From positions 7,145,299 to 7,209,298 of the forward strand of contig NZ_JAGKQQ010000001.1 in NCBI RefSeq assembly GCF_017939745.1: DNA of 64,000 nt. Reading direction: 5' to 3'. Positions 14,152 through 30,982 of the stretch are shown piece by piece. The position numbers and the translations under genes are program-made. A model generated the notes under the pieces. That model saw only the letters and a program-made list of their open reading frames with translations. It was not told the DNA's origin and made no database searches. The number at the start of each line of letters is the position of its first letter. The first letter of the stretch is position 1. Source of the DNA: Gemmata palustris. GTDB taxonomy: Bacteria; Planctomycetota; Planctomycetia; Gemmatales; Gemmataceae.

Positions 14152-14540
14152 GGGCCACCTTTTCGATCATTTAGTACGCATTTTACAGCAGTCCGCAGTA
14201 GCACTGGGTTCGGCGTTTGGTCAGAGGCCACGCGACTTACACGGCCGCTCGAGTACCGCCAGCGTATGCCGAACCTGCAATCAGTTCGCGCCGACGAGAT
14301 GTTACTCACTGCGCGGGAGGCAACACAACACGTTCGCGCGTCACTTCTTGGACCAAACCTCGTAGGGGATCTTGTTGAAGCATCTGAAGTGGAGGGCAAA
14401 TCTGAGCGCTATCACGTTACCGGTATGCACTTACGTCGTCAACGCTGCCTATACTACTGCACAAGTTTCCACATAAAAATCGCCGGGAAATATCCGGTTC
14501 GAGTGTCAATGTACGGGCGCCATACACACCTGACGGCCGT
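14152..14540. other. Gene-free stretch at the left edge of the mobile element
   Basis: Frames crossing this ~390-bp segment look non-coding by composition. It is more AT-rich than the chromosome around it and contains the candidate attachment core at 14477-14488. Nothing else definable is visible. Confidence 0.5.
14477..14488 (+). repeat. Candidate left attachment core (12-bp direct repeat)
   Basis: AAATCGCCGGGA occurs here and in the same orientation at 30008-30019, just upstream of the integrase. The segment between holds the integrase, phage-like genes and an excisionase-like gene close to this end, as expected of an integrated element of 15.5 kb. A 12-base match in the searched regions could still arise by chance. 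Confidence 0.3.
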
Positions 14541-14828: not shown

Positions 14829-15150
14829 GTATTCGCTCCTCCGGGGATGTGAACGCGGTACGCCCGACGCGCGCCGCCGGGCGCGATCTTATACGAGCGT
14901 CGCGGGAGATGAAAGTGTGTGGTGGGCACAAAGAAAAGTCAGCTGGGGTGCCCTTGTCCCCGGTTGAAATTACGACAGGTTACTGGCCCTATTTTTGTTC
15001 GCACGGCGGGCTGGCCCGGTTAGGCCCACATCAATAACTTGTTACCTCTGACAGAAATTATAATCAGAGTTGCACCGGGTGCCACAGCGCGGATAAGTTG
15101 ACCGCTAGGGACATTACGTCTGTGCGGTAAGCCCTGCTGGTGCAACAACT
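14829..15150. other. Intergenic region between divergent genes
   Basis: About 320 bp separate the divergent DUF1580-like and DUF6941-like genes, so promoters for both should lie here. The right part is AT-rich and contains a TATAAT at 15059. No small gene is convincing. Confidence 0.5.
15059..15064 (+). promoter_or_regulatory. Possible -10 box upstream of the DUF6941-like gene
   Basis: A consensus TATAAT lies 87 bp before the start codon at 15151 in an otherwise GC-rich setting. A TTGTTA 14 bp upstream could be a -35 box but the spacing is shorter than usual. Confidence 0.3.
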
Positions 15151-15570
15151 ATGAACGGACCCGAACCAGTTGTCCTGGCGGTAGTGCTCTGTGACGCGGT
15201 GCATACGGACCACGCGACGGGCAAGAGAACCTTGCTCGGCACGTTCTCCCGAATCAACGCATCTCATTTTCCCGTGACGCACCCGCGAATGGCGGTCTAT
15301 GTTTGCTTAACCGAGTGCCACGGTGATCTACCCCTGACGTTCCGCATCGCCGACGCGAGCGACGACCGGGCGATCTTCGAGGCGTCGAACGTGATCGAGG
15401 TAGGCGACCCGTTAGCGGTCGTTGAGCTGGACATCCAACTCGGGGCGCTCACGTTCCCGGAGCCCGGCGAGTACCGAGTTCAGATTCTCTCGAACGGGCC
15501 ACCGCTCCTGGAACGGCGGCTGCTCGTCGTTGCCATAGCCGTTCCAGATCATACACCAGAGGGCGGGTAG
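15151..15570 (+). CDS. DUF6941-like hypothetical protein
   Basis: The 139-residue protein reads like a planctomycete family of unknown function that I associate with DUF6941. Typical phrases are 'VVLAVVLCDAVHTDHATGKR', 'LLGTFSRINASHFPVTHPRM' and 'AVVELDIQLGALTFPEPGEY', suggesting an all-beta domain. No signal peptide or catalytic motif is visible. It is directly followed by a small gene with no gap. As part of the element it would be cargo. Confidence 0.75.
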   Translation: MNGPEPVVLAVVLCDAVHTDHATGKRTLLGTFSRINASHFPVTHPRMAVYVCLTECHGDLPLTFRIADASDDRAIFEASNVIEVGDPLAVVELDIQLGALTFPEPGEYRVQILSNGPPLLERRLLVVAIAVPDHTPEGG

Positions 15571-15786
15571 ATGCCGGACCAGTCGCCTCGATCCTTTACC
15601 GCGCCGGGTGTCAGTTTCAGCTTCGCCTACAACGTTCCCGTCACCCCCGTCATCTCCACCGATCCCGGCACACAAGACACAACCACCGGCACCCTGTGCC
15701 CCGAAGTCGTTCAGCTATTGCGCATGAGCGGCGTGCGCATCCGCCCGCACCTCGTGGTTGACGAGCGCCCACGTAAGCCGCGGTGA
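15571..15786 (+). CDS. Small hypothetical protein coupled to the DUF6941-like gene
   Basis: The ATG immediately follows the TAG of the upstream gene and is preceded by GGGCGGG, so translation is probably coupled. The 71 residues ('MPDQSPRSFTAPGVSFSFAY...') contain no recognised domain. Existence is supported mainly by the arrangement. Confidence 0.5.
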   Translation: MPDQSPRSFTAPGVSFSFAYNVPVTPVISTDPGTQDTTTGTLCPEVVQLLRMSGVRIRPHLVVDERPRKPR

Positions 15787-15844
15787 ACACACCTGAGCAA
15801 CCGCCGCGGGCCACGGGAGCCGAGTTGTTCCCTTTCTATCCGCC

Positions 15845-16504
15845 CTACTCCTTCCCCAGCGCCAGATCAACAACCCAGCACCCGCGGACGTGCGGCCCCG
15901 GTCCGCGGCAGTGATCGAGCACATCGGCGCTGTCACACCCGGCGTCTTGGAGCGCGTCGGCCAGGATCGGCATCGCGCTGAAGTCGCGTGACTCGTACAT
16001 CTGGGATGCGAGCGCGACCGTTGTGGAGGTGCGCCACGAGGGGGAGAAGGTCAAGGGGCGAAGGGGAGAAGGCCCGAACAATTCACGGAACAAACTAACC
16101 AGACGCCCCGCTAACCGGTGTGTGAGTGCGCCCCACCTCTCGCTCCTGTCGAGAGTGCCCAGAAGTTGCGAGCTGGAGGTCGTGCTGAGCGCGATGAAAT
16201 AGAAATCGCCGGTCTCGGCTATATTGCGGCGCCAAGCAGTACGCTCGGGTGTGGAGCGGGATTGTATGGCGCTCGTGTACACGAGCGTGTTGGCCTGTTT
16301 CAACGATTCGGCCGGCAACTCACCTTCGATCCACTGCTCAACAATTTCCACCGCCTCACGTAGTTCCGGAAGAGGTAGCCGATCCCAGACCGACCGGGCG
16401 GCGTGGGTGAGAAGCAGACGGAGCTTGCGCTCCGTTCTGAATGCGGACGTCGCAAGTAACATTCGAGTCGGATCTTCGCACACCAGCCATTCCGCTTCGG
16501 TCAT
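15845..16504 (-). CDS. Gemmataceae-type conserved hypothetical protein
   Basis: I place the start at ATG 16504 ('MTEAEWLVCEDPTRML'), preceded by GGGAG, rather than at the longer frame start at 16615. The 219-residue product matches a paralogous family abundant in Gemmata relatives. These begin 'MTEAEWL..' followed by an RKLRL helix, and end 'LADALQDAGCDSADVLDHC' and 'GPGPHVRGCWVVDLALGK'. Function is unknown. It is useful here mainly as a lineage marker. Confidence 0.8.
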   Translation of the reverse strand: MTEAEWLVCEDPTRMLLATSAFRTERKLRLLLTHAARSVWDRLPLPELREAVEIVEQWIEGELPAESLKQANTLVYTSAIQSRSTPERTAWRRNIAETGDFYFIALSTTSSSQLLGTLDRSERWGALTHRLAGRLVSLFRELFGPSPLRPLTFSPSWRTSTTVALASQMYESRDFSAMPILADALQDAGCDSADVLDHCRGPGPHVRGCWVVDLALGKE

Positions 16505-16568
16505 CGGGCGCTCCCTGGAACCGCTCCCAGCATGACCGATCCGGCGCCCGGTGCAAGCCCCAACGAAA

Positions 16569-16590
16569 ACACCCGCCGATTGGCGGGTGT
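16569..16590 (-). terminator. Terminator after the fused topoisomerase gene
   Basis: ACACCCGCC and GGCGGGTGT form a 9-bp stem with a 4-base loop, followed on the minus strand by TTTTC. It lies 22 bp past the stop of the topoisomerase gene, inside the 5' leader of the next minus-strand gene. Confidence 0.75.
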
Positions 16591-16611
16591 GGGGCGGTCG
16601 GGTTTGGTCGT

Positions 16612-18990
16612 TCATGAAAGAGGCGCGGCTACCTCGTTCGCCCTGGAATCAACCACCCCCGACCAGTGTTCCAGAGGGTGGTCGGCCAACATCGACGGGA
16701 GTGATGAGGCTAGGCTTTTTGCCGCAATATCTAACTCGCATTTGAGTTCAGCGATCGCCTTCTCGACACGCGCGTTAACGTTCGCTGAGCGAATGGCATC
16801 TTCGGTAAGGCGTTTCCTGATTGCCTCTCGTGCGCGTTCGGTCATCTCATTTTGAACTACCTCTATGGGCGGTACGACTTTCCCCGAGTCATGCTCGCTC
16901 ATTTTCCGCGTGAGCCAAGCGAGAAACTGCGGAGTGGGCATCGCGTTTAGCTCAATACGGTTAGTTTGAAGCCACTCTCGATCCGAATCAGAAATGTACC
17001 GCCCAACTCGGACGGTTCGCTTTCGATGGATCGTCTCAAGTTCCAGCCCCATTTCCCGCCCTTCGGCTGGGTCCAGCCCCAAATTTATAACCTTCACGTT
17101 GTGGCCGGCGAAGGCTCGACAGAGGGTCTCGAAAATCATGGTGCCGTCACCGTCGGCATCGTGAATGCAAAAGAACTGAATCGGTTCGCCTGTGCGATTG
17201 ATCATACGTATCACTTCTCGCGCCGCCCGAGTCGCGTAGCCCTTTGATGTGAGTAGGGCGCAGTCGTGTCGCTCCGGCCACCGGGCTTGCTGCAGGAGGG
17301 GGAACAAGCCCTCTTTCTCGCAGTACAGGATCTTATTGAACCCCCAGGACGGGCGCTCGTAATCGGCAACCGATCGCGTTCCGAGAGACAGCGAATCGTG
17401 AGTGTGAGGGTGATAAATCGTACCTCGATCGTCACGGTAGAGGTGCTCGATATCTCCGCATTTGTCTTCGTATTGCCCTACCACTCGTGAGAATGTATTG
17501 TAGCTTGGATCTTTACCAAAAGCATCTATCAGACGCGGGCGAATGCGATAGTAAAATTGGCGCAAGCTGAAACCGTATACTCCACCTCCACTGAGCACCT
17601 CTGCCGCCTCACTTCGGTGAGATAGGATCAGATCTTTCTGAGAGGACTTACCCCTCCCCTTTGGCTTGTTGCGCTTCGCGGTTCTCACTGCCTTCTCAGC
17701 CGCTGTGAGGATCTGATCCATCATCGGAGAGAGGTCGGGATCTTTGCCGCTCGATGTGAGCGGAACGAAGGGGCTGATGACGTTCACGGTTATGCTGAAG
17801 TCGCCGCCTCTCTTTTGCCCGACCCTGAAGCTATCGCAGTCGAACCCGCCGCCGTTGAGCACGTATTCCACATCACCGTCGTGGCGCCAGCAGCCGGGGT
17901 TGTTAACGACCGGAGTTCGGTTCACGCAAACTGTAGCTTTGGCTCCCTTCGATCTTTTGGCCCACACTTCCACCACGAACGGAATTTGTGCGCCGTCTTG
18001 TTCAAACTCTCCGCGGGCTACAGCATACCCATCACCGAGAGATTCAATTGGCCCGACCTTTCCGAGTCGCGATGGGGGTACGGGGCGCACGGAGTGCTGA
18101 GCAGCGGCGAGAAGGGTGGCGGCCTCGTTCGGCTTGATAGAGGTCGCACCCCGGCCCCGCAGCCCGCCCGCCACCTTTGCAACTCGCTTTCGCTCCGTGC
18201 AGCCGTCGAGCGTTTCGAGCACACGCTCAAGCGGCCGGTGACCGGCCGCTTGAAGGAGTTCCCAAAATGAGCTGTCCCCATACCACCAGGGAGACGACTT
18301 GCCCCTGTACTGGTCGCCGTGAGTCAGAAGGCACGCCACATGCGCCCACTCGAACAACCCGCCGTCCTTGGCCGCGATCGAAGCGAACTCGCCTCTAAAA
18401 ATTACCTCGATCCTCGTCCCCTCTTCATTCCAGGGCGCGACCTCAACCACTTCCGTGTGGCCCTCTGGTCGAGGAACAAGCCTGAGCGCCCGGCCGCGCG
18501 TGCAGACCTTCAACTCTCCACCACTAACGAGCGCGACCCCCGCAACGACCCTGAGCCCGTTACCCAACATTCCGCGCGTTGGCATCCGGCGAGTCTTGCT
18601 CGATGTAAGTGGCCGCCGGATGGAAAAGTGGGTGGCCAGCTCCTCATCCGTTCCGGGCAGGCCGGGGCCGCGATTCGACACGAACAAGGTGAGCGAGGGG
18701 GCGCAGTTCTCTTTTGAGCCAGCCCCCTCGTGCTCGCCCCCTAGGAGCCCGAATTCTACGCCACCGGTAGCGTCCAGGGCGTTATCCACCAACTCCTTCA
18801 CCACCACTCGCGGTAGCAACCCTCGGCTGACGCCGGCCTTCGCTGAGATCCGCGCCGGGTCACGGAACTCTGTCCAGTCCTGACGGGTGAAAACCAGAGG
18901 TTCCGGTTCCCCGTCGGTAAGAACGTTCGTTTTTGTCGTGTTCGGTATCTTGGTTCGGGGGTCCAAAATCGAGCCGTTTTTCCGCCCCAC
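16612..18990 (-). CDS. Single-chain type IIB topoisomerase (Topo VIB-VIA fusion, Topo VIII-like)
   Basis: The 792-residue protein joins both parts of a type IIB topoisomerase. Residues ~35-230 are a GHKL ATPase ('VKELVDNALDA' at 64-74 with Asn70; 'NRGPGLP' at 106-112; 'RGMLGNGLRV' at 139-148). Residues ~280-420 resemble the H2TH and transducer parts. Residues ~450-520 are the winged-helix CAP part with the candidate cleaving tyrosine in 'SLRQFYYRIRP' (Tyr480/481). Residues ~550-640 are the Toprim fold with Glu558 and 'DADGDG' (Asp611, 613, 615). Such enzymes cut and pass duplex DNA using ATP. Fused forms, Topo VIII, are known mostly from plasmids and integrated elements. GGGAGG lies 8 bp before the GTG start. 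Confidence 0.85.
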   Translation of the reverse strand: MGRKNGSILDPRTKIPNTTKTNVLTDGEPEPLVFTRQDWTEFRDPARISAKAGVSRGLLPRVVVKELVDNALDATGGVEFGLLGGEHEGAGSKENCAPSLTLFVSNRGPGLPGTDEELATHFSIRRPLTSSKTRRMPTRGMLGNGLRVVAGVALVSGGELKVCTRGRALRLVPRPEGHTEVVEVAPWNEEGTRIEVIFRGEFASIAAKDGGLFEWAHVACLLTHGDQYRGKSSPWWYGDSSFWELLQAAGHRPLERVLETLDGCTERKRVAKVAGGLRGRGATSIKPNEAATLLAAAQHSVRPVPPSRLGKVGPIESLGDGYAVARGEFEQDGAQIPFVVEVWAKRSKGAKATVCVNRTPVVNNPGCWRHDGDVEYVLNGGGFDCDSFRVGQKRGGDFSITVNVISPFVPLTSSGKDPDLSPMMDQILTAAEKAVRTAKRNKPKGRGKSSQKDLILSHRSEAAEVLSGGGVYGFSLRQFYYRIRPRLIDAFGKDPSYNTFSRVVGQYEDKCGDIEHLYRDDRGTIYHPHTHDSLSLGTRSVADYERPSWGFNKILYCEKEGLFPLLQQARWPERHDCALLTSKGYATRAAREVIRMINRTGEPIQFFCIHDADGDGTMIFETLCRAFAGHNVKVINLGLDPAEGREMGLELETIHRKRTVRVGRYISDSDREWLQTNRIELNAMPTPQFLAWLTRKMSEHDSGKVVPPIEVVQNEMTERAREAIRKRLTEDAIRSANVNARVEKAIAELKCELDIAAKSLASSLPSMLADHPLEHWSGVVDSRANEVAAPLS

Positions 18991-19013
18991 GTTGTAGTCC
19001 TCCCAGGTGTGAA

Positions 19014-19040
19014 ACAGGCCAGCGCAACGCGCTGGCCTGT
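19014..19040. terminator. Perfect 12-bp hairpin upstream of the topoisomerase gene
   Basis: ACAGGCCAGCGC and GCGCTGGCCTGT enclose three bases. On the minus strand it follows the gene ending at 19149 and precedes the topoisomerase ribosome-binding site by ~10 bp. It could end the upstream transcript or attenuate topoisomerase expression. Confidence 0.6.
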
Positions 19041-19148
19041 GAAGCGAACACCGTTCATAACGGGTGAAATGCGATGCCGTAAGGTCGGCACTTTCCGCTG
19101 TCAGCGGTTGCCGTCAGAAGTCATTGCGCGCGTGAGATTTGCGATCAA

Positions 19149-19520
19149 TTACGCCGATCGCGGCCCGGTACGCCACTTCGTGAACTCTGCGTTTGTCTGA
19201 AGCCGGTGCGAGTTGAACATGCACAGTTGATCGAACATCACGAGCGACAGTCCCCGCAAGCGGGTCATGAACTCATCCCCGAACTCCGTGAACATTCCGT
19301 CCGGGAACTCCTGAACGTCGTTCACGAACTCGTCAATCTGCCCGCGAGCCTGCTCGACGAGCACCAGCAACTTGCCCAGCCGCGCGTTAACCGGCGTGTC
19401 CCAAACCGGATGCGGCGGGTCGAACAGCAACTCGGCTGATGTCGGCTTCTGCGCCTTGGCGCTGGTGGTCGACTTCTTGCTCTTCGGGGTGGTTTTCTTC
19501 GTGGCTTTACTCGTGCTCAT
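19149..19520 (-). CDS. Hypothetical protein with Lys/Thr-rich N-terminus
   Basis: The 123-residue protein starts from an ATG with AGGAGCG upstream. The first ~30 residues are Lys/Thr/Ser-rich ('KATKKTTPKSKKSTTSAK'), like a DNA-binding tail. The remainder is helical ('ARLGKLLVLVEQARGQIDEF'). I do not recognise a family. It is the first of three small minus-strand genes ahead of the topoisomerase and may be co-transcribed with them. Confidence 0.6.
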   Translation of the reverse strand: MSTSKATKKTTPKSKKSTTSAKAQKPTSAELLFDPPHPVWDTPVNARLGKLLVLVEQARGQIDEFVNDVQEFPDGMFTEFGDEFMTRLRGLSLVMFDQLCMFNSHRLQTNAEFTKWRTGPRSA

Positions 19521-19562
19521 CGTCGCTCCTCGTAGTGGTGGTGTAAGTGATTGGGTTGTGGA

Positions 19563-19811
19563 TCAGCCGCGACCGAGCGCGCGGACATAGGCGAACACGG
19601 CGTCTCGGAGATCACTGGTGAACGAGTCGTACTCATCATCGAAAGGCGAGTCGTAACCAGCGCGGCGCATGTCGTCGTCGAGTCGCCAGACTCGGCTGAA
19701 CAGATCGCCGACCTTCACGATCTCAGCGAGGAGTTCCGCCCCCTTCTCTTCGTCGGCGCGGCCATTTGCTGTTGGCCCTTCGTTCACGGGCGCGATCGCA
19801 GTGGCGGTCAT
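19563..19811 (-). CDS. Small acidic hypothetical protein
   Basis: 82 residues, acidic and helical ('VGDLFSRVWRLDDDMRRAGY'), no recognised domain. It begins at an ATG 42 bp upstream of the next small gene in the same direction. Small genes of this kind are typical in phage-like elements. Confidence 0.5.
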   Translation of the reverse strand: MTATAIAPVNEGPTANGRADEEKGAELLAEIVKVGDLFSRVWRLDDDMRRAGYDSPFDDEYDSFTSDLRDAVFAYVRALGRG

Positions 19812-19923
19812 GATGATCCTCGTTGGTTGGGTACGTTCCTTCGACGTGACGGCCCCGCGCTGGGGTCGCCGGTTGGACTTCGGGTTGTGCAGGGGATGGG
19901 CCGGTGAGTTCCGGCCCGGGGGA

Positions 19924-20193
19924 CTACGCGACCCTCAACTCTCCCGCGTCAGGTTCGGCCGCCACGGTCGCGACCAGTTCCACGGGCTTCGGCGTCGGCA
20001 CATTGACTGTGATCTTCACCATCCGCGAGGCGAGTCCCGCGGCGGGCTGGAGTTCGTCGGCGTCTTTCGATACCTCGTAGTCGCCGTTCTCATCGACCAA
20101 AACCCAGACCTCGACTTGGATCAGTTCCGCTTCCATCTGTCGGCCCTCACAGTGCGCGCAGTGGCCCGACTCCCCGCGGGCTGCGGGGATCAC
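19924..20193 (-). CDS. Small protein with a CxxC motif
   Basis: 89 residues from a GTG start. An N-terminal 'HCAHCEG' could bind a metal, followed by a beta-rich segment ('AELIQVEVWVLVDENGDYEV'). No family recognised. It is transcribed divergently from the XRE regulator. Confidence 0.5.
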   Translation of the reverse strand: MIPAARGESGHCAHCEGRQMEAELIQVEVWVLVDENGDYEVSKDADELQPAAGLASRMVKITVNVPTPKPVELVATVAAEPDAGELRVA

Positions 20194-20349
20194 ATCGCCG
20201 GAGCATCCAGCGCGATCATTGAAATAGGTATAACTTGAAGGCTAGCAGAGTTCTGCCATCCCAGCAAGCATAATCCGGCGTTTCCAAGAAAACTTTGTCA
20301 GCAGCGAATCTTCCGGGTAGAGTTTTGCTGATACACCTCGGAGCAGTCC

Positions 20350-20643
20350 ATGCAACAGGGAAGCGTAATGGCTGGAGGGTTTTCCGAACGGCTGAAGCGG
20401 CTTCGCAAGCAGGCCGGCATGACCCAAGAGGCGCTGGCGCGCGCTGCCAACGTCAGCAACACTACGGTCGCCAAGTTGGAACAAGGCGTCGGCGATCCGA
20501 CGTGGAACACAGTTGTCGCCCTGGCGCGGGCGTTGGGTGTATCGGTTGCGGAATTTGATGAAGGTGGCGAGGCGGAAGTGCCGGAGCAACCGGAGGTACT
20601 ACCAGAGAAGCCGGCCCCCAAGAAGCCGAAGGGCAAGAAGTGA
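20350..20643 (+). CDS. XRE-family transcriptional regulator
   Basis: The 97-residue protein contains a textbook Cro/C1 helix-turn-helix ('RLKRLRKQAGMTQEALARAA' then 'VSNTTVAKLEQGVGDPTWNT'). A Pro/Lys-rich tail follows. Two starts are possible, ATG 20350 (GGAG 6 bp upstream) and ATG 20368 (AGGGAAG upstream). Placed between divergent halves of the element, it is a good candidate for the element's repressor. That role is inferred from position. Confidence 0.85.
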   Translation: MQQGSVMAGGFSERLKRLRKQAGMTQEALARAANVSNTTVAKLEQGVGDPTWNTVVALARALGVSVAEFDEGGEAEVPEQPEVLPEKPAPKKPKGKK

Positions 20644-20713
20644 TGGTACGGCTGCCGACCGCGACATGATCCAAACCAGTTGGATTGAGATCCGCGAATC
20701 ACGAGGCCCGCTC

Positions 20714-21142: not shown

Positions 21143-21193
21143 TGAACCGCTCGCGATCCCCGGCGCCACTGGGCTGAACCTCCATCGGCTGTT

Positions 21194-22408: not shown

Positions 22409-22486
22409 GGGCAAATGGTCGCCAGGAGTTTATGCGCGTGTTGTGAAGGTGGTATCGTATCGGCTAAAGTGGCAAAAACGAAGACA

Positions 22487-22507
22487 GCCGGGAGAACACC
22501 TCCCGGC
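22487..22507 (-). terminator. Terminator at the end of the phage-like gene run
   Basis: GCCGGGAG and CTCCCGGC form an 8-bp stem with a 5-base loop. On the minus strand a TTTTT follows 8 bases later. It lies ~40 bp beyond the stop at 22548. Confidence 0.55.
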
Positions 22508-22547
22508 CGCTTCCCGTCTCGTGGCACAACCGACGGCCTACCTGAAC

Positions 22548-22760: not shown

Positions 22761-22772
22761 CACCTGCTCCCG

Positions 22773-23294
22773 TTAGTTGGCTTCCCGCAATGCCGCAATG
22801 CGGTCCCTGATCGCAATGACCTTGTTCGTCGCCGCCGTGGGCGCCGCTTCCGGTGCCGCACCCGCCCGCGATCGGGCCGCCGGAGAGATCCCCAGCGCGT
22901 CAGCCAATTGCTTCACCCGACCCAAGAGCGCGTCCTGCGTGCGGAGCAGCGGGTTCGGTTTCTCGACACTGTGACCCGTGGGGCGCCCGTTGCGATCCAG
23001 AGTCGGCACCTCGATCACAACGCCGGTCTTGTTCAGCGCCTTGCGCACCTCCGCGAGATCGGCCTCCGCCGTCGCGTAGGACGCGATCAGGCCCACATCG
23101 ACGTTCGCCACGGTCCCGGCCTCTAGCATGTCGCCGACGACGCGCTTGAACACCTTCTTGGCGGTCTTGCTCAACCAAGACGGACACGCCGGAGCGCCCG
23201 GCCTGTACCGAGACGCGCCCTTGCTCGCGGCCGGAGATCCCTTCGGCATCGGCCGCATCACGTACTGTCCCGGCTTCGGCCCACGCTGGCCCAT
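22773..23294 (-). CDS. P27-type phage terminase small subunit
   Basis: The 173-residue protein resembles the P27 family of small terminases. It has a basic N-terminus ('MGQRGPKPGQYVMRP'), 'LSKTAKKVFKRVVGDMLEAG', 'ATAEADLAEVRKALNKTG', 'EKPNPLLRTQDALLG' and a helical end 'LADALGISPAARSRAG'. The small subunit recognises the packaging start site and recruits the large subunit for DNA packaging. No large subunit gene is present in the window, so any packaging would rely on another phage. Confidence 0.75.
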   Translation of the reverse strand: MGQRGPKPGQYVMRPMPKGSPAASKGASRYRPGAPACPSWLSKTAKKVFKRVVGDMLEAGTVANVDVGLIASYATAEADLAEVRKALNKTGVVIEVPTLDRNGRPTGHSVEKPNPLLRTQDALLGRVKQLADALGISPAARSRAGAAPEAAPTAATNKVIAIRDRIAALREAN

Positions 23295-23426: not shown

Positions 23427-23798
23427 CTATTTCGATTTCTGCGCTGGTGTCGGCACGAGGGGCGTGAGCTTGTTGACGAGCGCGATCTGATCGGCGATGG
23501 CCACCGCGGTCAGGTACGGCAGGTCGCGCGCCTCGTCAATCGTGAGCAGCGCCTGACCTTCCGCGTCGCACAGACCGAACGCGATCACGCGAACCATTCG
23601 GCCGATCATGTCGCCGGGGTTCTGCCGCTCGAACTGGTAGAGCGCGGCCCACCGCTCCGCGGTCAAGGTGCGCGCGTGGAGCTTCACGCCCTCGACTTCG
23701 ATCGTGACGACGCGCACCTCGTCGGGAAGCCCGCGTACCTTCATGCGGTGCCGAACGAATCCCAGAAGCGTCGGCCCGTCCACGTTCAGCGCGCCCAT
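23427..23798 (-). CDS. Phage tail assembly chaperone-like protein
   Basis: 123 residues. The C-terminal pattern 'FGLCDAEGQALLTIDEARDL' followed by helices and 'ADQIALVNKLTPL' resembles tail assembly chaperones, which prevent aggregation of the tape measure protein and lie next to its gene. Here the tape-measure-like gene is immediately upstream with a 1-bp overlap (TAATG). The assignment is by pattern and context. Confidence 0.6.
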   Translation of the reverse strand: MGALNVDGPTLLGFVRHRMKVRGLPDEVRVVTIEVEGVKLHARTLTAERWAALYQFERQNPGDMIGRMVRVIAFGLCDAEGQALLTIDEARDLPYLTAVAIADQIALVNKLTPLVPTPAQKSK

Positions 23799-25162
23799 TA
23801 CGTCACCACCTTGATCGTGGGAGAGCGATCCATCAGGTCGATGAGCCGCTGTATCTTGCGGTTCTGCTCCTTCGCGACCTTCAGCGCCTCACGCGCGATC
23901 TGCACCGGGTTGTCCCCGATCGACCCGCCCGCGATGGCGTTCGAGGCGCGGAAGTTCGCGACCGCGGTATGGGCCTCGAACGACCCGCCCAGCGCGGCGC
24001 CCGATAGGATGGGGCCGCCGCTTTCGAGCTTGGTGTCTTTGACGCCGTTCGCGATGCTCGACGCGATCCCGAACGTGTTGACGAGAAGTTCCGTGCTGTT
24101 CTGCAACTTCTCGATTTCCTTCAACTGCCGCTCTGCGAAGCCCTGCATGCGCAGGTCGTAGAGCTGGATCTGGTTCGCCGTGAACCCGAGCGTATCGCCC
24201 TGCTTCTTGATCGCGTCGGTCACCTGCTTCATCTTGTCGAAGTCGGCGCCACCTACGAAGTTCGCCGCGCTGCCGACCGCCGTCATGACGTGATCGAAAC
24301 CCTTCGTCACGGCGTCGAGCTTCTCGGCAGCGATGACGAACTCGCGAACCTGCTTTTCGCTGAAGCCGTCAAGCTCCAACTCCAGGCGCTTCGCCGCGTG
24401 TTCGGCCATCCCAAACGTTGCCGCCTGCCGCTCCATCGCCTCGGTGATTTTGTTGATCTCTCCGACCTTTGCGGGGTTGCGGTCCGGGTCGTTGTGGAGC
24501 AACAATTGCTTCAGCAATTCGTCGCGCCGCTCGGTCGCCTTCTGAAGCCGCTCGTCGGACTCCTTCAGCGCGGCTTCGAGGGGTTCACGAAGTCGCCCGA
24601 GTTGGCCAAACGACCATTCGCGAGCAACCTGCGCGTCCGCGGTCATTCTTTCGCTGAGACTCCCTCCGCGCGCCGCGCCCAGTTTCAGCTTGTCGAGCTC
24701 GATTTGCGCCCGGCGTTTCTCCGCTTCGGCCGAGCCGGACTCCGCGCTCACCTCGCGTAACTGCTTTTCGAGTTCCACGAGCCGACTGGCCGCGGTCGCG
24801 CTCTGTGCGTCGAGCATCGCGGCCCGATCTGCGGCGCGGGAGTCAGTGATCTTGGCGAGCTTCTGACTCAACTCGGCCGATCGCTCCATCGCCTTGTTGA
24901 ACTGCTCCGTGCGCAAGACTGCGTGTTGGATTTCGTCGCCGACCTTGAGTGCCGCGAACGCAACGGCGGCCCAGCCCAGAGCTTTGGCGCCCGGTCCCGC
25001 CAGCAACTTATCGACACCTGCGCCGGCGCTGCCCGCGATCTTGCGCGTCTTCGCCGCCCAACTTTCAGTCGCGGCTTCGGCCTTCTTCAGCCCGACCAAC
25101 AGTTGGTCCGCGTTCGCCGTGAGAACTACCGCACCGGTTCCGATCGTGTTTGAGCCGGCCAT
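23798..25162 (-). CDS. Tape-measure-like helical phage protein
   Basis: The 454-residue protein begins like tail tape measure proteins ('VVLTANADQLLVGLKKAEAA'). A short Gly/Ala hydrophobic part (about 45-75) is followed by long coiled-coil segments and Gly-rich ends ('LESGGPILSGAALGGSF'). At this length it would be a short tape measure for a short tail, or a degenerate one. It overlaps the tail chaperone-like gene by one base. Confidence 0.55.
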   Translation of the reverse strand: MAGSNTIGTGAVVLTANADQLLVGLKKAEAATESWAAKTRKIAGSAGAGVDKLLAGPGAKALGWAAVAFAALKVGDEIQHAVLRTEQFNKAMERSAELSQKLAKITDSRAADRAAMLDAQSATAASRLVELEKQLREVSAESGSAEAEKRRAQIELDKLKLGAARGGSLSERMTADAQVAREWSFGQLGRLREPLEAALKESDERLQKATERRDELLKQLLLHNDPDRNPAKVGEINKITEAMERQAATFGMAEHAAKRLELELDGFSEKQVREFVIAAEKLDAVTKGFDHVMTAVGSAANFVGGADFDKMKQVTDAIKKQGDTLGFTANQIQLYDLRMQGFAERQLKEIEKLQNSTELLVNTFGIASSIANGVKDTKLESGGPILSGAALGGSFEAHTAVANFRASNAIAGGSIGDNPVQIAREALKVAKEQNRKIQRLIDLMDRSPTIKVVT

Positions 25163-25226: not shown

Positions 25227-26048
25227 TTAGCGCGGGAGAATTCCTGGGAGCTTCATGTCCACCTCGGCCGTGGTCAGCGCCCCGCGGCCGATGAGGTCAT
25301 TGAGCACCGCGACCAAGTGCATGTGCGAGCTCTGATCCCGCATGTCGGCTGGGACGGGACCGCTCGCGAACATGCTCGCCAGTTGGCGCATCCCCGCGCC
25401 GGTCAGTTGCACGACAGCGGACCTGAGTTGCTCACCGGCCGCGACGAAGTTCAGGTACTGCGCGGCCGCCTCGCGCAGCGCCGGCACATACAGGGTCGCT
25501 TCGGCTTCTTCGGCCAGCGCACTTCGGGCTTTGCGAATCGCGTCCTGAGTCGCGCCCGCGGCCACGCTCGCAGCTTCCGTGAGGAGCTTCTCGCGCTTGT
25601 ACAGGGCGCGCAATTTCTCGATGTCCGTCTCGTCCGCGCCCGCGACGATCAAGGCGACTTGCCGCTTGTCGAGTTCCCGCTCCCCGGCGCCCGCGGGCAG
25701 ACTCAGCGCCGTGAGGAGCGCGCCCTTCGATTCACCGAGTGCCTTCCGCTTCGCCTGGATGTCGGCTTCGGCGGCCCGCGCGGAGATCACACCGGGAACA
25801 CCCTCGACGTCGGGCAGCCCGATCACCGCAGGCGCGCGGGGTGGGGGGATCACCGGCGCCGTCAGGAGCCCTTCCAGGTCGCTGCCGTCGTCGGCTTCAT
25901 CGTCGTCGTCGTCACCGATCGGAGCAATCGGTTCCGCCTTCCGCACGGTCGGGCGCACCCGCTGGCGCGGCGCCGGTTCGGGCGCGTCGAGTTGCTGACT
26001 GAGCGTCCGCTCGATCAAGGCGATATCTGATTGCGCTTCCGGGGGCAT
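25227..26048 (-). CDS. Phage-like helical protein, possible scaffold
   Basis: 273 residues with an acidic low-complexity segment ('DDDDDEADDGSD'), a Pro-rich linker and long helical stretches ('LREAAAQYLNFVAAGEQLRS'). I do not recognise a family. Its place directly downstream of the prohead protease is where phages often keep a scaffold or capsid-associated gene, but there is no capsid fold visible in it. Confidence 0.5.
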   Translation of the reverse strand: MPPEAQSDIALIERTLSQQLDAPEPAPRQRVRPTVRKAEPIAPIGDDDDDEADDGSDLEGLLTAPVIPPPRAPAVIGLPDVEGVPGVISARAAEADIQAKRKALGESKGALLTALSLPAGAGERELDKRQVALIVAGADETDIEKLRALYKREKLLTEAASVAAGATQDAIRKARSALAEEAEATLYVPALREAAAQYLNFVAAGEQLRSAVVQLTGAGMRQLASMFASGPVPADMRDQSSHMHLVAVLNDLIGRGALTTAEVDMKLPGILPR

Positions 26049-26111: not shown

Positions 26112-27206
26112 TCAGCACATACAGTCTTCGAGTTCGTCCCTGCCGCAGAACTCGCACACCATTTGCGGCTCGGACGGCTTTCCCCGGCTGCCCGTGAGCC
26201 GAAGCGTGGCCGCGATCCGCTCGCGGTCGCATTCGGACGCGATCCGCCGGCACTGCGCCGATAGCGCGTTCATCTTGCGGGCGCGGGGGCTGGGAGGGAC
26301 CGGGCGGGAAACCTCACGCTCCTCATCCTCCATGCCCATGAGCGCGAGTTGCACCGCGACGGCATCCTGATCGGCGCGAGCGTCGGTGCCGTGATTGCTC
26401 CGGCCTCCGGCGTCGGCCGCAACGCCAGCAGTCGAGCCTGTGTACGCGGGAATCGAGACGGGACCGAGTTCGTAGAGTTCGAGGTCCATGCGCTCGATGA
26501 TGTCTCGCCCATCGTCCGCGTACCGTTTCGAGTCGTGCGGAAAGAACGAGAACGAAGAGCCGTTGAGATCGCCGCGCCGGGCCAGTTCGTACACCTCGTT
26601 GCCCGTGGGCGTGTTGGGCAAATCGACCTCGTACCGCAGCCCGACCTTGTCCACGGTGAGCCGAAGTGTTCCCGATGTGGTTCGACCCAGAAGGCGCGCC
26701 GTGTCGTGGTCCTGACAACACACCACGTCGGGCCGCTCGCGCAGGGTGCGCGTGAAGGCGTCCGGGTTGATGCGCTCCCAGAGGTCGGTGTTCAGCTCGT
26801 ACTCGGTGCCGGGATCGCCGGGGACGTGGAACACCGCGCCGTAACCGGAAAGAACCCGGTTGCCCCCTTCGGTACGAACCGTGGGGCGACGGTTCGCGTG
26901 CCGCCGCTCGCCACCGATCGACCCGCTGCGGTACTCGATCTTCGGCCCCGTGCTACCCCCTCGCTCGATCCAACGGTCAATATCCGCGGCGCGCCACCGC
27001 GGGCGGGAACCCACGCCAAACGGCTGGGGGAAGCGCCCCGCGGCCACAAGCCGGCGAATGGTGATGACGTGACAGTTGAGACGCTTTGCGACCGCGGCGG
27101 TATCGAGCGCGTTCGGGTCGCTTGAGGTCCGGGTGTTGTCACCCGATTCGGGAATTGTGAGCACGGGTACTACTCCGGGTTCGCCGCAGTTCGCGGGAGT
27201 CACCAT
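26112..27206 (-). CDS. HK97-type prohead protease with an N-terminal HTH domain
   Basis: Of 364 residues, ~33-83 form an excisionase/MerR-like DNA-binding module ('LDTAAVAKRLNCHVITIRRL', 'RWRAADIDRWIERGG'). Residues ~105-260 match HK97 (U35) prohead proteases: 'GYGAVFHVPGD', His167 in 'CQDHDTARLLGRT', Ser217/218 in 'DLNGSSFSF', and an acidic residue in 'LELYELGPVSIPAY'. A C-terminal cluster 'CEFCGRDELEDCMC' looks metal-binding. Such proteases cut capsid and scaffold during head maturation. The HTH fusion is unusual. The start is the ATG at 27206. Confidence 0.75.
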   Translation of the reverse strand: MVTPANCGEPGVVPVLTIPESGDNTRTSSDPNALDTAAVAKRLNCHVITIRRLVAAGRFPQPFGVGSRPRWRAADIDRWIERGGSTGPKIEYRSGSIGGERRHANRRPTVRTEGGNRVLSGYGAVFHVPGDPGTEYELNTDLWERINPDAFTRTLRERPDVVCCQDHDTARLLGRTTSGTLRLTVDKVGLRYEVDLPNTPTGNEVYELARRGDLNGSSFSFFPHDSKRYADDGRDIIERMDLELYELGPVSIPAYTGSTAGVAADAGGRSNHGTDARADQDAVAVQLALMGMEDEEREVSRPVPPSPRARKMNALSAQCRRIASECDRERIAATLRLTGSRGKPSEPQMVCEFCGRDELEDCMC

Positions 27207-27255
27207 CTGGTATCCGGTTCACCCCGGTCCTGTCAGATCCCGGAAAACGAAAAAA

Positions 27256-27297: not shown

Positions 27298-27849
27298 TCA
27301 GCGCGAGAGACATTTTTGCCCATTCGCGCGCTGAGGCCTCATGCGCCGCGGTGCGAGCAGTTCGGCCGCGCGGTGCAGTTGGCGAGCGACGGTGTCGTGG
27401 CTTTGATTCGTCAAATGGCCGATCTCGCGGAGGCTGAAACCATCGACCATGTACAATCTGACGATAAATGCAATGTCTTCAGGTAGATCCTCGATCAATA
27501 CGGGCTTCGCGGGCTGCTCCACGCGCCGGCGCGCCACGTCGTGTTCGAGCGATACGACCGCCGGCCGGTTCGAGCGCCTGAGCTTCAGCCGGTGGAGCGC
27601 ACGCCCGAACCAGCGCCGAACGGCCGCCTTCGCGAACCCTATGAACGTGTCCGCATTGGTGCAGTTGGTGCGACACCACATGAGCGCGTCGGTAGCCGCG
27701 TCGATCAGAACCTCTTCGACCTCGCTGCTACCGCGGGCGCGCTTCCGTGCGAAGCTCATCGCCCAATCGCACGCAGCCTTCATGTCCTCATCCGCGATCG
27801 CGACCGTCAGGGGCGCGCCCACGAGCACCTCGTTGTTCTCGGTTAGCAT
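27298..27849 (-). CDS. Sigma-70-like factor encoded in the mobile element
   Basis: I choose ATG 27849 ('MLTENNEVLVGAPLTVAIAD') because GAGGT lies 4 bp upstream; the longer frame to 28185 looks non-coding. The 183-residue product has a region-2-like helical part ('CTNADTFIGFAKAAVRRWFG') and a region-4 helix-turn-helix ('LREIGHLTNQSHDTVARQLH'). It may direct transcription of the element's late genes or be a regulator derived from an ECF factor. Confidence 0.65.
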   Translation of the reverse strand: MLTENNEVLVGAPLTVAIADEDMKAACDWAMSFARKRARGSSEVEEVLIDAATDALMWCRTNCTNADTFIGFAKAAVRRWFGRALHRLKLRRSNRPAVVSLEHDVARRRVEQPAKPVLIEDLPEDIAFIVRLYMVDGFSLREIGHLTNQSHDTVARQLHRAAELLAPRRMRPQRANGQKCLSR

Positions 27850-28356
27850 TTCGACCTCGCGGTTGTTGGTTGGTCCGGCGGATGCGGCTCGTCTTCCTAA
27901 TCTGTCGGGATGGCGCGGGTTGGTGCGTACCGACCCCTGCGATGGAGTCGGTACAGTCAAAACCCTGTCGTACATGGACGGGAGGTTTGACCGGCCCGGG
28001 TATTTGGTTCGCGCATCCCGGGCTTCCACCCTGCGCGCCGAACAGTGGTGGGTCGCTGGCAGGGTGTCGGTACGCACACCAGCGCTGTTCGGTACGGCAA
28101 CCCGCACCCGGGTCACCTTCACTCCTGGCTCATCGCCCTCACGTTCCCGGAGTTGGGAACCGATCCGTCGGCCGCAGCCACGCACGGAACAACGCGCTCG
28201 CCCAACCGGGGGCTATGTCGAGGCGAAGTGTACACGATGGCATATAGTGAACACAAGGTCGGTGCGCGGCGAGGTCTGCCCCTTGCTCTTGCCCGCCGGA
28301 ATTACGACGCGAGCGCGACGAAAACGCGACGGGGCTGCGACAAAAGCGAGACCTTT

Positions 28357-28468
28357 AAAGGTCACCCCAAAGGTGGGTCCAAAGGTGGTTGACGTGTGGT
28401 GCGGACTATGGGGATTTGGGAACCACACCACCCTTAAGGGTCAACCCAAGGGTGGTGTCAAGGGTCAC
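28357..28468 (+). repeat. Two iteron-like triplets with 12-bp spacing
   Basis: AAAGGT starts at 28357, 28369 and 28381, and AAGGGT at 28436, 28448 and 28460, each triplet exactly 12 bp apart. The second triplet lies in an inverted repeat (ACACCACCCTT at 28425 and AAGGGTGGTGT at 28448). Such phased repeats are typical binding arrays for a plasmid initiator, integrase arm site or repressor. Confidence 0.65.
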
Positions 28469-28471
28469 GAC

Positions 28472-28546
28472 GTGGGGCAGAAAAACAGCTCGATTTTGGA
28501 ACCCCGAACCAAGATACCGAACACGACAAAAACGACCGTTCTTCCC
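28472..28546 (+). repeat. Inverted copy of the topoisomerase gene's first 75 bp
   Basis: This segment repeats the start of the topoisomerase gene (minus strand, 18990 downward) with five substitutions in about 75 bases, then similarity ends. It is in the opposite orientation, so the two copies bracket 9.5 kb as inverted repeats. All five differences would change the encoded amino acid. Confidence 0.8.
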
Positions 28547-28647
28547 GAACCCGAACAGATCCTTAGAGCCGAGTGGTCGCCTTACGTCTGCGCGCAGATG
28601 TTTGCACCCGCACGCAGATGCATTCCGGGCGGTCGCGCCCCAGCTCG

Positions 28648-29940
28648 CTACCCCATCTTGCGCGCGATCTCAATTTTCATGCGCTCGCGCGGATCGACGT
28701 GAACGTAGACCGCGCTGGCAACGGCCTCCGAATCCCCGATCGCCGCCGCCGCGTGTCCGAGCGAGCGGAATTGCTCGGCAACTTCTGTGGCGAGCGCGTG
28801 CCGGAGTTGGTGCGGTGACCACCGAGTCACACCGGCCCGGACGCTGGCGCGGAGAACCGCGTGCGAGTAATTATTCGGCCCCTCGTCGAAGATCGGACCG
28901 GAGGGGTCGCCTTCGAGAAACGGCCGGAGGATCTCCACCGCCTTCGGGCCGAAGTAGTACGCCTGCCGCTTCCCGCGGTGGCGGTTTTTGTTCGCCTTGC
29001 CGACCTCGTACCGCCACACGTCCGCCGACCTGTCGAGATCGCCCAATTCTAGCGCGCACACTTCGCCGGGCCGCATTCCCGTCAGCCGTTGCAACTTCAC
29101 CATCGCCGTGAGCTTTGTGTTGCGCACGGGGTCGGCCGGCGCGAGGAAGGGTATTGTCGCCTCAATCTGCTGGTTCGTGGCGGGCTGCTTTTTCGGTCGA
29201 TCGGGCGCGGGCGATCGACCCGGTTTGAGGCTCTCGACCAATTTCAGGGCGCTGTGAACCGCGGCCGGAACCAGTGATTGCCCCGCGCCCCAGGCGAACA
29301 TCCGCACGACGCGGTTGACGTAGGAGTTGACTGTCGTTCTCGAATGCCCGTAGCCGACGAGCTTCGTGCGGCATTCTCGGAGCGCGGCCGGGGTGAAGTC
29401 CGCCGCGAGCGTCATGCCCAGTTCTTCGTTCACTAATCGCGCCGCCGCGAGGCACGTCTTGACCTCGGTCGTCGGTAAGCCGTCCTTTGTGTAGTAGCCG
29501 CGGACGTGTTCCATCCACCGCTCTGCGAGGATCGCGACCGACAGCCCCCCGCCGGCCTTCATCCCCGAGCCGGCCATCTGATCGTACTTGCCCTCAATCC
29601 AATCCTGCGAGAACTTGCGGTACGCGGTGTTCGCCTCCGCGCCACCGTGCTTCCCGAAATAGCGCTCGTTGATCTTCCCCATCATCCGCCAGCGCGAGTA
29701 CGCGCGCCCGGACGGGTGCCGCTTCAACTTGGGGACCGGGCGCGGGACGTTTGCCGGGGGCCGCCCGCCGTAGGTGGACTTCCTCCGGATCGGCGTCGCT
29801 ACCGCCTGCTCGATCGTTTGGCCGTAAACGGCGATGCGAGACCTGAGCGTCGCGGCACTTACGCCGCACCGCTCGGAGAGTTGCGCGAGAGTCAGCCTCT
29901 CGCCCATGTACTCGACCACTGTTGCTTTTCCCTGAGCCAT
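28648..29940 (-). CDS. Tyrosine-type site-specific integrase
   Basis: The 430-residue recombinase has an N-terminal helix-turn-helix-like part ('LTLAQLSERCGVSAATLRSR'), a SAM-like core-binding domain (about 130-240) and a catalytic domain. The catalytic residues are Arg290 ('TGMRPGE'), His377 and Arg380 ('HQLRH'), His396 and the nucleophile Tyr412 ('AVYVHVDP'). It should integrate and excise the element. It is complete with an intact active site, so the element may still be mobile. Confidence 0.92.
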   Translation of the reverse strand: MAQGKATVVEYMGERLTLAQLSERCGVSAATLRSRIAVYGQTIEQAVATPIRRKSTYGGRPPANVPRPVPKLKRHPSGRAYSRWRMMGKINERYFGKHGGAEANTAYRKFSQDWIEGKYDQMAGSGMKAGGGLSVAILAERWMEHVRGYYTKDGLPTTEVKTCLAAARLVNEELGMTLAADFTPAALRECRTKLVGYGHSRTTVNSYVNRVVRMFAWGAGQSLVPAAVHSALKLVESLKPGRSPAPDRPKKQPATNQQIEATIPFLAPADPVRNTKLTAMVKLQRLTGMRPGEVCALELGDLDRSADVWRYEVGKANKNRHRGKRQAYYFGPKAVEILRPFLEGDPSGPIFDEGPNNYSHAVLRASVRAGVTRWSPHQLRHALATEVAEQFRSLGHAAAAIGDSEAVASAVYVHVDPRERMKIEIARKMG

Positions 29941-30061: not shown

Positions 30062-30982
30062 TCAGATGTTGTTGAAGAACGTGTCGCGCTCGTTCACGTT
30101 CGCGCCGTCGAGTCCGAGCCACAAGTCCCGAGAAGACGCCGCGGGCGCTTCAAATACGAGAACGTCCACGATCCCGGCCCCACCGGGCGGCAATGAGTGG
30201 TTCCCCTTCAGTTGCCCGCCGACCCACGCGCCGGACGGGATCTTCGCGGCCTTGATCTTCGCGTTCGCCGAGTCCTTTAACTCCGCGTAGTTGTGGAGCG
30301 GGTTCTGCCACCGGCGCAGCGCCACGCGGCCGTGCGGGAGGCTCTGGGTCTCGACCCACACGACCAACACCGGCTCGGGCGCGAGAAACTCGTTGTTCGT
30401 GGCGCTAATCAGGGTCGGGCGCGTGACCGTTGCGCCGACGACGCGGGTCTGAATTGGGCCGCAGCGCACCCACTCGGAAACGAACCCCGCGGGCGGGCGA
30501 TTGAGTGGGAGCGCGTGCGGGGGCGGCGCGAGATAATCGGCCGGGTTCGGCGCAACGGCGACCGGATCGGGCTGCTCTTTTTTCGGGAGCGGTGCCGGCG
30601 TGTTCGGTTCCTGAATCGGCTCCGGGCGCACTTTTGAGATCGGAGGCGGCCCCGGAGGAACTATCGACCCGGGGTTGGGCGGGAGTTCGGGATTCGTCTT
30701 CGCTGGCGGTTCGCGGCCTTCAACGGGCTTTTCAATGAAAGCGGGTGCTTTGGCCACCGGCTCCGGGGGATCGGAGTCGTCACGATTGAACAGAGCGAAC
30801 ATCCCCCCGCAGGCGAGCAGCAGAACGAACAACCCGCCGCCCAAAACGGGCGCCACCACGGGGAGCCAAGAATGCTGAACCGCCTCGCTCCCGCAACCGG
30901 GGCAGCGGGGCGCGAGGTCGTGGCCCTGCGGGTACCACGTGTAATTGCAGGCGTCGCATCGATTGAGTGGGCGAATCGGCAT
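30062..30982 (-). CDS. Zinc-ribbon membrane-anchored protein
   Basis: I place the start at ATG 30982 (GGAG 9 bp upstream) instead of the TTG at 31027. The ~306-residue protein opens with a zinc ribbon ('CDACNYTWYP' and 'CPGCGSEA'), then one membrane helix ('VVAPVLGGGLFVLLLACGGM'). A long Pro-rich linker and a C-terminal beta-rich domain (~190-306) follow. No named family is certain; the end domain recalls DUF4352-like exported domains. It is the first chromosomal gene right of the element. Confidence 0.75.
   Translation of the reverse strand: MPIRPLNRCDACNYTWYPQGHDLAPRCPGCGSEAVQHSWLPVVAPVLGGGLFVLLLACGGMFALFNRDDSDPPEPVAKAPAFIEKPVEGREPPAKTNPELPPNPGSIVPPGPPPISKVRPEPIQEPNTPAPLPKKEQPDPVAVAPNPADYLAPPPHALPLNRPPAGFVSEWVRCGPIQTRVVGATVTRPTLISATNNEFLAPEPVLVVWVETQSLPHGRVALRRWQNPLHNYAELKDSANAKIKAAKIPSGAWVGGQLKGNHSLPPGGAGIVDVLVFEAPAASSRDLWLGLDGANVNERDTFFNNI

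What the first reader, a model, noticed from the sequence alone, without database searches (positions are those of the whole stretch)
16612..18990. Single-chain Topo VI-like (Topo VIII-type) topoisomerase in a phage-like element
One protein carries both an ATPase part (E..DNALDA, GMLGNGL) and a cleaving part with a Tyr motif and Toprim acidic residues (Glu558, DADGDG). Known Topo VIII enzymes are fused forms of this kind from plasmids and integrated elements. One usual N-box-side Asp appears as Asn106-Arg107 ('NRGPGLP'). A bacterial type IIB enzyme beside phage morphogenesis genes suggests a role in element replication or transfer.
Basis: partly seen in the sequence, partly recalled or inferred. 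Interest (0 to 1): 0.8.

Follow-up and report, generated by a model that had tools for sequence, protein, structure and literature searches.

The report
Topoisomerase VIII in a mobile element
A 792-residue single-chain DNA topoisomerase of the rare plasmid-type family Topo VIII sits in a swappable gene slot of a phage-derived integrated element in a bacterium, and a sister element in the same genome carries a different relative of the same enzyme class in exactly that slot.

Summary
The ORF is on the MINUS strand (18990 to 16612) and encodes an intact 792-aa fusion of a Topo VI-B-like and a Topo VI-A/Spo11-like half. It is 36-39% identical over 91-95% of its length to plasmid proteins, including one on the Paenibacillus polymyxa plasmid pPPM1a, and its model matches solved Topo VI-B and the Toprim part of Topo VI-A. 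I file it as a Topo VIII. All cleavage residues are present, but the adenine-binding Asp of the ATPase is Asn106; all 28 other readable rows have Asp.

New context: the gene fills a slot in a 15.7-kb tyrosine-integrase element with a few phage head/packaging genes. A colinear sister element in the same genome has, between the same conserved flanks, a ParB-domain/Mini-A fusion; four further elements have neither. An unrelated serine-recombinase element family carries Topo VIII in one genome and ParB-Mini-A in another. The two therefore look interchangeable. Several relatives lie near replication genes, so I infer an accessory role in element DNA topology or replication. Whether this copy still uses ATP is open. 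The protein is a new member of a known family; the swap is the interesting part.

The parts
16612..18990 (-). Topo VIII gene, 792 aa
17620..18879 (-). Topo VI-B-like half (residues 38-457: GHKL ATPase, H2TH-like helices, transducer)
   Evidence: structure match 2hkj Z 20.8, 383 aligned, rmsd 6.0; profile match to M. mazei Topo VI-B E 2.5e-9. The H2TH label is my reading of the helices
18673..18675 (-). codon AAT = Asn106 at the adenine-binding Asp of the ATPase N-box (Asp in 28 of 28 other readable rows)
17548..17550 (-). Tyr481, presumed DNA-attacking tyrosine (R477 four residues before, as R102/Y106 of M. mazei Top6A)
   Evidence: invariant; M. mazei numbering from PMC13040014 passages
16891..17331 (-). 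Toprim region, residues 554-700, with E558, D611, D613, E680
   Evidence: 1d3y_A Z 13.1, 155 aligned, rmsd 2.9
16525..16608 (.). conserved left flank of the cargo slot (contains a hairpin; terminator-like by my reading), shared by the three elements of this genome
19000..19142 (.). conserved right flank of the cargo slot (upstream/ribosome-binding side)
   Evidence: 82.5% identical to the sister element
18914..18995 (.). 82-bp repeat that supplies about the first 25 codons of the Topo VIII ORF; inverted copy of 28467-28548
28467..28548 (.). other copy of the 82-bp repeat, about 100 bp beyond the 3' end of the integrase gene (also next to the sister element's integrase)
14368..14380 (.). probable left attachment repeat GAT[C/G]TTGTTGAAG
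   Evidence: 13 bp with 1 mismatch; as long a match in 1 of 100 random region pairs; left junction conserved in related genomes
30065..30077 (.). probable right attachment repeat, inside the 3' end of host gene 30062-31027
28648..29940 (-). tyrosine integrase of the element
   Evidence: Pfam Phage_integrase 2.9e-13; relatives
27298..28122 (-). sigma-70 region-4-like regulator
   Evidence: below cut-off, E 3.2e-5; phrog_1740
26112..27206 (-). excisionase-type HTH fused to HK97 prohead protease
25227..26048 (-). conserved element protein, unknown
   Evidence: homologues in sister elements
23798..25162 (-). conserved element protein (marker of the element family)
23427..23798 (-). tail-assembly-chaperone-like protein
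   Evidence: phrog_344 E 5.5e-6
22773..23294 (-). P27-type small terminase
20350..20643 (+). Cro/CI-type HTH regulator

Best explanation
The gene encodes a Topo VIII: a single-chain, presumably homodimeric type IIB topoisomerase. The N-terminal GHKL/transducer half would act as a nucleotide-closed gate, and the C-terminal winged-helix/Toprim half would cut both DNA strands with Tyr481 and Mg bound by E558/D611/D613. It is accessory cargo of an integrated, phage-derived tyrosine-integrase element, in a slot that can instead hold a ParB-domain/Mini-A fusion with the same cleavage residues. The most likely job is to relax or unlink the element's own DNA when it replicates or moves. Shown here: homology, residues, fold of the model, slot and swap. 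Inferred: dimer, activity, role. Asn106 predicts weak or altered nucleotide binding in this copy, so it may relax or cut DNA poorly, or independently of ATP.
For: Near-full-length homology to plasmid Topo VIII. Two relatives at about 50% identity in one genome of the same family. Clade with planctomycete Topo VIII. 116 of 121 positions invariant in 18 other Topo VIII are kept. Model matches Topo VI-B and the Toprim part of VI-A. Slot swap with ParB-Mini-A between colinear elements of one genome and again in an unrelated element family. Genes near Topo VIII or ParB-Mini-A in other elements include replication genes: NrS-1-type primase, Prim-Pol, DnaB twice, a Toprim-domain protein, and a P4-type primase next to Topo VIII on an archaeal plasmid. 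P. polymyxa Topo VIII relaxes DNA with Mg (PMC7614492 passages).
Against: Asn106 replaces the adenine-binding Asp; the equivalent D79N blocks ATP binding in yeast Hsp90 (PMC12280139 passage; equivalence recalled). Four of six elements of this backbone lack any type IIB gene, so the element family does not need it. The window element itself has no recognised replication gene. Among 12 Topo VIII loci of other origin no neighbour recurs widely; a methyltransferase is shared by L052 and the G006/G051 elements and a serine recombinase by L062. The neighbours scanned were chosen by me, not at random; two neighbours of the viral ParB-Mini-A L092 gave no family, and those of L086, L088, L089 and L090 were not scanned. 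The Tyr481-bearing stretch 450-534 has no listed structure match. No activity was measured.
Confidence: 0.66

Rival explanations
1. A Topo VIII on its way to inactivation: the gene arrived as cargo, its N-terminus was replaced by a repeat, its ATP site is already lost, and it does nothing useful.
For: Asn106 at a residue that is Asp in 28 of 28 other readable rows; window has the most family-invariant positions broken, 5 of 121, against 0-4 for the 18 others; N-terminus from a repeat; a review says many Topo VIII appear to be in variable states of inactivation (PMC7614492 passages).
Against: 792 codons without a stop; all cleavage residues, E66, N70 and the transducer Lys416 kept; five other Topo VIII rows also have 3-4 broken positions.
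Confidence: 0.22
2. A DNA-cleaving weapon rather than a maintenance enzyme: like the Top6A-related nucleases of Wadjet/MksBEFG, the type IIB gene is element-borne defence or inter-element competition, which would explain the variable slot.
For: Occupied by different type IIB-like genes in sister elements and absent in others, as defence cargo often is; Top6-like Toprim nucleases serve plasmid defence (PMC13040014 passages).
Against: PADLOC gives only a weak JetD match limited to 45 residues of the Toprim domain, E 0.0035; of the other eight proteins scanned only ParB-Mini-A matched anything (a methyltransferase model over its ParB part, E 5e-4), so no partner was seen; several relatives lie near replication genes; P. 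polymyxa enzyme relaxes DNA.
Confidence: 0.1
3. Chance neighbourhood: slot swap is coincidence and Topo VIII merely hopped into this element with no element-related role.
For: Only two occupied slots in the tyrosine-integrase family; the partly colinear G011a has neither gene; the 82-bp repeat suggests a recombination accident at the 5' end.
Against: The replacement is gene-for-gene, with conserved flanks within about 15 bp of start and stop, and the same exchange occurs in an unrelated element family, although there other genes between the flanks differ too.
Confidence: 0.1

Closest known systems
Topo VIII of Paenibacillus polymyxa plasmid pPPM1a (PPM_RS27690, WP_014600290.1; the record calls it 'ATP-binding protein', the Topo VIII label is from a review plus inference)
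   Same: Single chain, same domain order, 36% identity over residues 32-787; same cleavage motifs.
   Different: Chromosomally integrated phage-derived element instead of a 366-kb plasmid; Asn106 instead of Asp; about 30-residue N-terminal extension, mostly from a repeat.
Topo VI (VI-A + VI-B)
   Same: Fold of most of both halves and catalytic residues.
   Different: One chain instead of two; sequence only distantly related (NCBIfam Topo VI models score 13.5-28.8 bits against cut-offs of 274-675).
Mini-A (Pseudomonas phage NP1 type; phrog_6247)
   Same: The sister element's slot protein, residues 196-461, belongs here: phrog_6247 E 2.2e-35, NP1 match E 1e-19.
   Different: Mini-A lacks the GHKL half; in these elements it carries a ParB N-terminal domain instead.
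Wadjet JetD / MksG nucleases
   Same: Top6A-like Toprim nuclease relationship; weak match.
   Different: No JetABC/MksBEF partners seen; JetD has no GHKL half (recalled).

Membership tests
Topo VIII | Fusion of Topo VI-B-like and Topo VI-A-like halves in one chain (most members) | tested here: met
Topo VIII | Groups with known Topo VIII rather than Topo VI | tested here: met
   Near-full-length tblastn to the P. polymyxa plasmid protein; tree of 24 rows. Topo VI sequences were not in that tree; the contrast with Topo VI rests on the weak NCBIfam scores
Topo VIII | Encoded by a plasmid or integrated mobile element | tested here: met
   Integrase element with end repeats and a colinear sister
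Topo VIII | Cleavage residues: Tyr, Arg four before it, Toprim Glu, DxD, and the fourth acid | tested here: met
   R477, Y481, E558, D611, D613, E680 invariant in A3; M. mazei equivalents Y106, R102, E202/E254/D256/E342; E680 = E342 is my alignment by motif
Topo VIII | Intact GHKL nucleotide site | tested here: inconclusive
   E66, N70, GxxGxG, K416 kept, adenine Asp replaced by Asn106
Topo VIII | Short C-terminal motif that separates Topo VI, VIII and Mini-A | not tested
   Recalled from a paper that is not held
Topo VIII | Homodimer; Mg-dependent relaxation | not testable with these tools
   needs biochemistry
Topo VI | Separate A and B subunits | tested here: not met
   one uninterrupted ORF
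Mini-A (for the sister element's slot gene) | Truncated Top6A homologue without GHKL half, related to phage NP1 protein | tested here: met
   profile-profile with Topo VIII weak (E 0.0037, probability 8.9); model of a viral relative poor, structure match inconclusive
Wadjet/JetD | JetD profile match over the protein with JetABC neighbours | tested here: not met
   only residues 582-626, E 0.0035; no Jet partner among the other eight proteins scanned

The most novel reading that the evidence does not exclude
Topo VIII and ParB-Mini-A are functional equivalents: mobile elements swap a GHKL ATPase-gated type IIB topoisomerase for one gated by a ParB-type (CTP-dependent) clamp domain. That would make ParB-Mini-A a type II topoisomerase driven by a nucleotide clamp other than GHKL, and the Asn106 Topo VIII an intermediate that has relaxed its need for ATP.
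Probability: 0.17. Interest if true: 0.85.

Novelty: new member of a known kind. Interest (0 to 1): 0.52.

Why it matters
Why mobile elements carry their own type IIB topoisomerases, and whether Topo VIII and Mini-A do anything in cells, is left open in the review passages read here. Natural swaps of Topo VIII for ParB-Mini-A, in two unrelated element families, give matched pairs with which the question can be tested. They also suggest that Mini-A in these bacteria works with a ParB-type clamp instead of a GHKL gate.

Tried and rejected
Phage collection: no match to the Topo VIII protein in 50,697 records. Viral contigs: none with the single protein, one Topo VIII with the alignment (L091), so Topo VIII is not a usual phage gene in these collections. 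Rfam: no match in 12000-33000. tRNA: none in the window. The 82-bp repeat was considered as an attachment site and rejected as the element's end: its copies are inverted and internal to the element, and a direct repeat fits better at 14368/30065. A conserved operon around Topo VIII in other phyla: nothing widespread among 12 loci. Defence: weak JetD only. Structure of a viral ParB-Mini-A: low confidence, its fold matches are inconclusive. Profile-profile comparison of Topo VIII with ParB-Mini-A is weak; the Mini-A label rests instead. A sample of 61 family genomes (G010 not among them) with the integrase at E up to 1e-60 found it in 3; the marker protein at E up to 1e-15 was found in 2 of 95, so the element family is small and the first swap rests on few elements. 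My gene caller missed the ParB-Mini-A gene of the sister element; it was found by reading the DNA and confirmed with the ORF listing. Absence of type IIB genes from elements was therefore also checked by tblastn, by whole-genome searches of G000 and G010 and by slot length (about 0.8 kb in G010s). Dropped from the six-element tally because the backbone is not, or only partly, colinear: G011a, G011b, both G094 loci, G000d, G010z, G010v; no type IIB match in the roughly 20 kb fetched around each.

Full report
WHAT IS THERE. The ORF lies on the minus strand, 18990 to 16612, GTG start with a Shine-Dalgarno-like stretch by my reading, 792 aa without a stop. Pfam gives TOP6A-Spo11_Toprim at E 6.1e-8 (above cut-off), HATPase_c at 3.8e-4 and the Topo VI-B transducer at 0.21 (both below cut-off). 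tblastn against plasmids gives 7 records, four of them covering at least 80% of the query: Paenibacillus polymyxa (two records), Pseudomonas pMPPla107 and pBASL58, 36-39% identical. The P. polymyxa M1 plasmid pPPM1a gene fits the plasmid-borne Topo VIII that a review names as the biochemically tested P. polymyxa enzyme (PMC7614492 passages); that they are the same gene is my inference. No phage record matches.

FOLD AND RESIDUES. An AlphaFold2 model made with 16 relatives has mean pLDDT 75.6; residues 1-37 are disordered. Residues 36-457 match Topo VI-B (2hkj, Z 20.8, 383 aligned, rmsd 6.0) and 535-700 match the Toprim half of Topo VI-A (1d3y_A, Z 13.1, 155 aligned, rmsd 2.9). The stretch 450-534, where the winged helix with Tyr481 should lie, is not covered by these rows. 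Against solved sequences the profile finds M. mazei Topo VI-B at 2.5e-9 and a Topo VI-A subunit at 7.1e-5. In 17 aligned proteins R477, Y481, E558, D611, D613 and E680 are invariant; M. mazei Top6 uses Y106, R102 and the acids E202/E254/D256/E342, and N48 and K435 in its ATP site (PMC13040014 passages). The window keeps the counterparts N70 and K416 (equivalence by motif).

ASN106. The N-box Asp is Asn (codon AAT). In a 32-row alignment, which includes some distant GHKL proteins and some near-identical relatives, 28 of the 31 other rows can be read at that place and all have Asp; three rows have no residue there. Leave-one-out: of 121 positions invariant in 18 other Topo VIII the window breaks five (E37Q, D106N, R298Q, L479F, D592E), the others break 0 to 4. 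In Hsp90 the change D79N blocks ATP binding (PMC12280139 passage; that the two positions correspond is recalled). Pairwise dN/dS estimates against the G006 genes are about 0.27-0.28, on nearly saturated synonymous sites; between the two G006 genes dN 0.30 and dS 0.52. So the gene is not obviously decayed, but its use of ATP is doubtful. A review reports one Topo VIII that relaxes DNA without ATP, and says many members appear partly inactivated.

THE ELEMENT. The genome (9.2 Mb, 65% G+C in the window) holds a second element, C1:387058-404768, colinear with window 14429-30014 and bounded by a 19-bp direct repeat. The window element is bounded by a 13-bp repeat with one mismatch at 14368 and 30065, the right one inside the 3' end of a host gene; as long a match arose in 1 of 100 random region pairs. 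A related genome, G010, has another element of this family at the same chromosomal place, with both flanks conserved. Element genes: integrase, sigma-region-4-like protein, HTH/HK97-protease fusion, small terminase, tail-chaperone-like protein, repressor-like HTH. No separate capsid, portal or large terminase was recognised. I call it a phage-derived integrative element, not a prophage.

THE SLOT. Conserved flanks (16525-16608 and 19000-19142) enclose only the Topo VIII gene. In the sister element the same flanks enclose a gene of 478 aa counted from its ATG (513 aa from an earlier GTG). Its N-terminus is a ParB domain (Pfam sub-cut-off 0.0086; profile match to Spo0J/ParB structures, best E 2.1e-7). 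Its residues 196-461 are a Mini-A: phrog_6247 'DNA topoisomerase' E 2.2e-35 and Pseudomonas phage NP1, the review's example of Mini-A, E 1e-19. Its family keeps the Arg/Tyr pair, the Toprim Glu, DxD, and the GHRR and N..R residues of the ParB fold (ParB motif meaning recalled). Of six elements with this backbone (three here, three in G010) one has Topo VIII, one ParB-Mini-A and four neither (whole-genome searches of G000 and G010 agree). One of the six (G010y) has a more distant integrase.

A SECOND SWAP. Full-length Topo VIII occurs in 2 of 95 genomes of the family: this one and G006, which has two copies (11 of 95 have any match, the others being A-like or B-like stretches of other ORFs). 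The G006 copies lie in two serine-recombinase elements whose other DNA is mostly 86-99% identical in 300-bp bins, while the Topo VIII genes are 60% identical as proteins and about 1.6 kb downstream of them is also diverged (0.52-0.60). ParB-Mini-A occurs in 9 of 95 genomes, ten loci, two of them flagged with a stop codon. In G051 two elements homologous to the G006 ones (recombinase about 60%, methyltransferase about 70% identical) carry ParB-Mini-A between the same flanking genes, though there the region also differs in other genes. So two unrelated backbones carry either Topo VIII or ParB-Mini-A.

ROLE. I scanned long neighbours of these genes, chosen by eye. Replication families were found near them: NrS-1-type primase-polymerase (G006), Prim-Pol directly after ParB-Mini-A (G051), DnaB helicase about 2 kb away (G010 at 3.99 Mb, G092), a Toprim-domain protein directly after (G087), and a P4-type primase next to Topo VIII on a Halalkalicoccus plasmid. 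Two neighbours of the viral relative L092 gave no family, and the short contigs of G008, G043, G088 and the G014 locus were not scanned. Elements of the window's backbone without a type IIB gene carry DnaB (G010s, and G010y by 98% identity) or an AAA_25 primase-helicase-like gene (c), while the window, its sister and G010x have the sigma-like gene there. I infer a role in unlinking or relaxing element DNA. It cannot be essential for the backbone. Against this, no neighbour recurs widely in other phyla and nothing was measured.

KNOWN OR NEW. [quoted passage not shown] PMC8185306 and PMC11302465 passages). The two primary papers are not held. The tree puts the window with the G006 copies (100/100) and more loosely with a Planctomycetota MAG (92/87). 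A search for Mini-A, topoisomerase and ParB together found no held paper, and the listings show no title on the swap; the unread 2020 paper may describe ParB fusions. I rate the protein a new member of a known kind and the swap as the reason for interest.

Noticed in passing
window 26112-27206 (-): Excisionase-type HTH_17 fused to an HK97 prohead protease; separate genes in sister elements b, G010s and G011a, fused in G010y (79% identical).
   Followed up: partly
window 18914-18995 and 28467-28548: 82-bp inverted repeat, 93% alike: one copy forms the 5' end of the Topo VIII ORF, the other lies just past the integrase gene; a third is beside the sister element's integrase. Recombination between the two window copies would flip 9.5 kb. 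Origin unexplained.
   Followed up: partly
L029:8766-10205 (sister element): ParB-domain/Mini-A fusion; 10 loci in 9 of 95 family genomes and three near-full-length relatives in viral contigs L092-L094.
   Followed up: yes
G006 C9:229.1-241.6 kb and 326.8-338.6 kb; G051 L083, L084: Serine-recombinase elements with primase, ParB-domain N6/N4 methyltransferase and either Topo VIII or ParB-Mini-A.
   Followed up: partly
L052 12291-13628: A relative of that methyltransferase directly follows Topo VIII in a Desulfotomaculum MAG.
   Followed up: no
window 37412-40103 (+): Neighbouring genes for a TPR protein and a caspase-domain (Peptidase_C14) protein, conserved in G009.
   Followed up: no
window 48506-55138 (-): Very long ORF, 2210 aa, with homologues in G009.
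   Followed up: no
window 35307-36845 (+): DDE transposase with Tnp_DNA_bind domain, about 5 kb outside the element.
   Followed up: no
L029, C1:388903-391678 in sister element b: ORFs that look like transposase fragments (my reading, no family search) inside the conserved left flank, parts of which lie on both sides of them.
   Followed up: no
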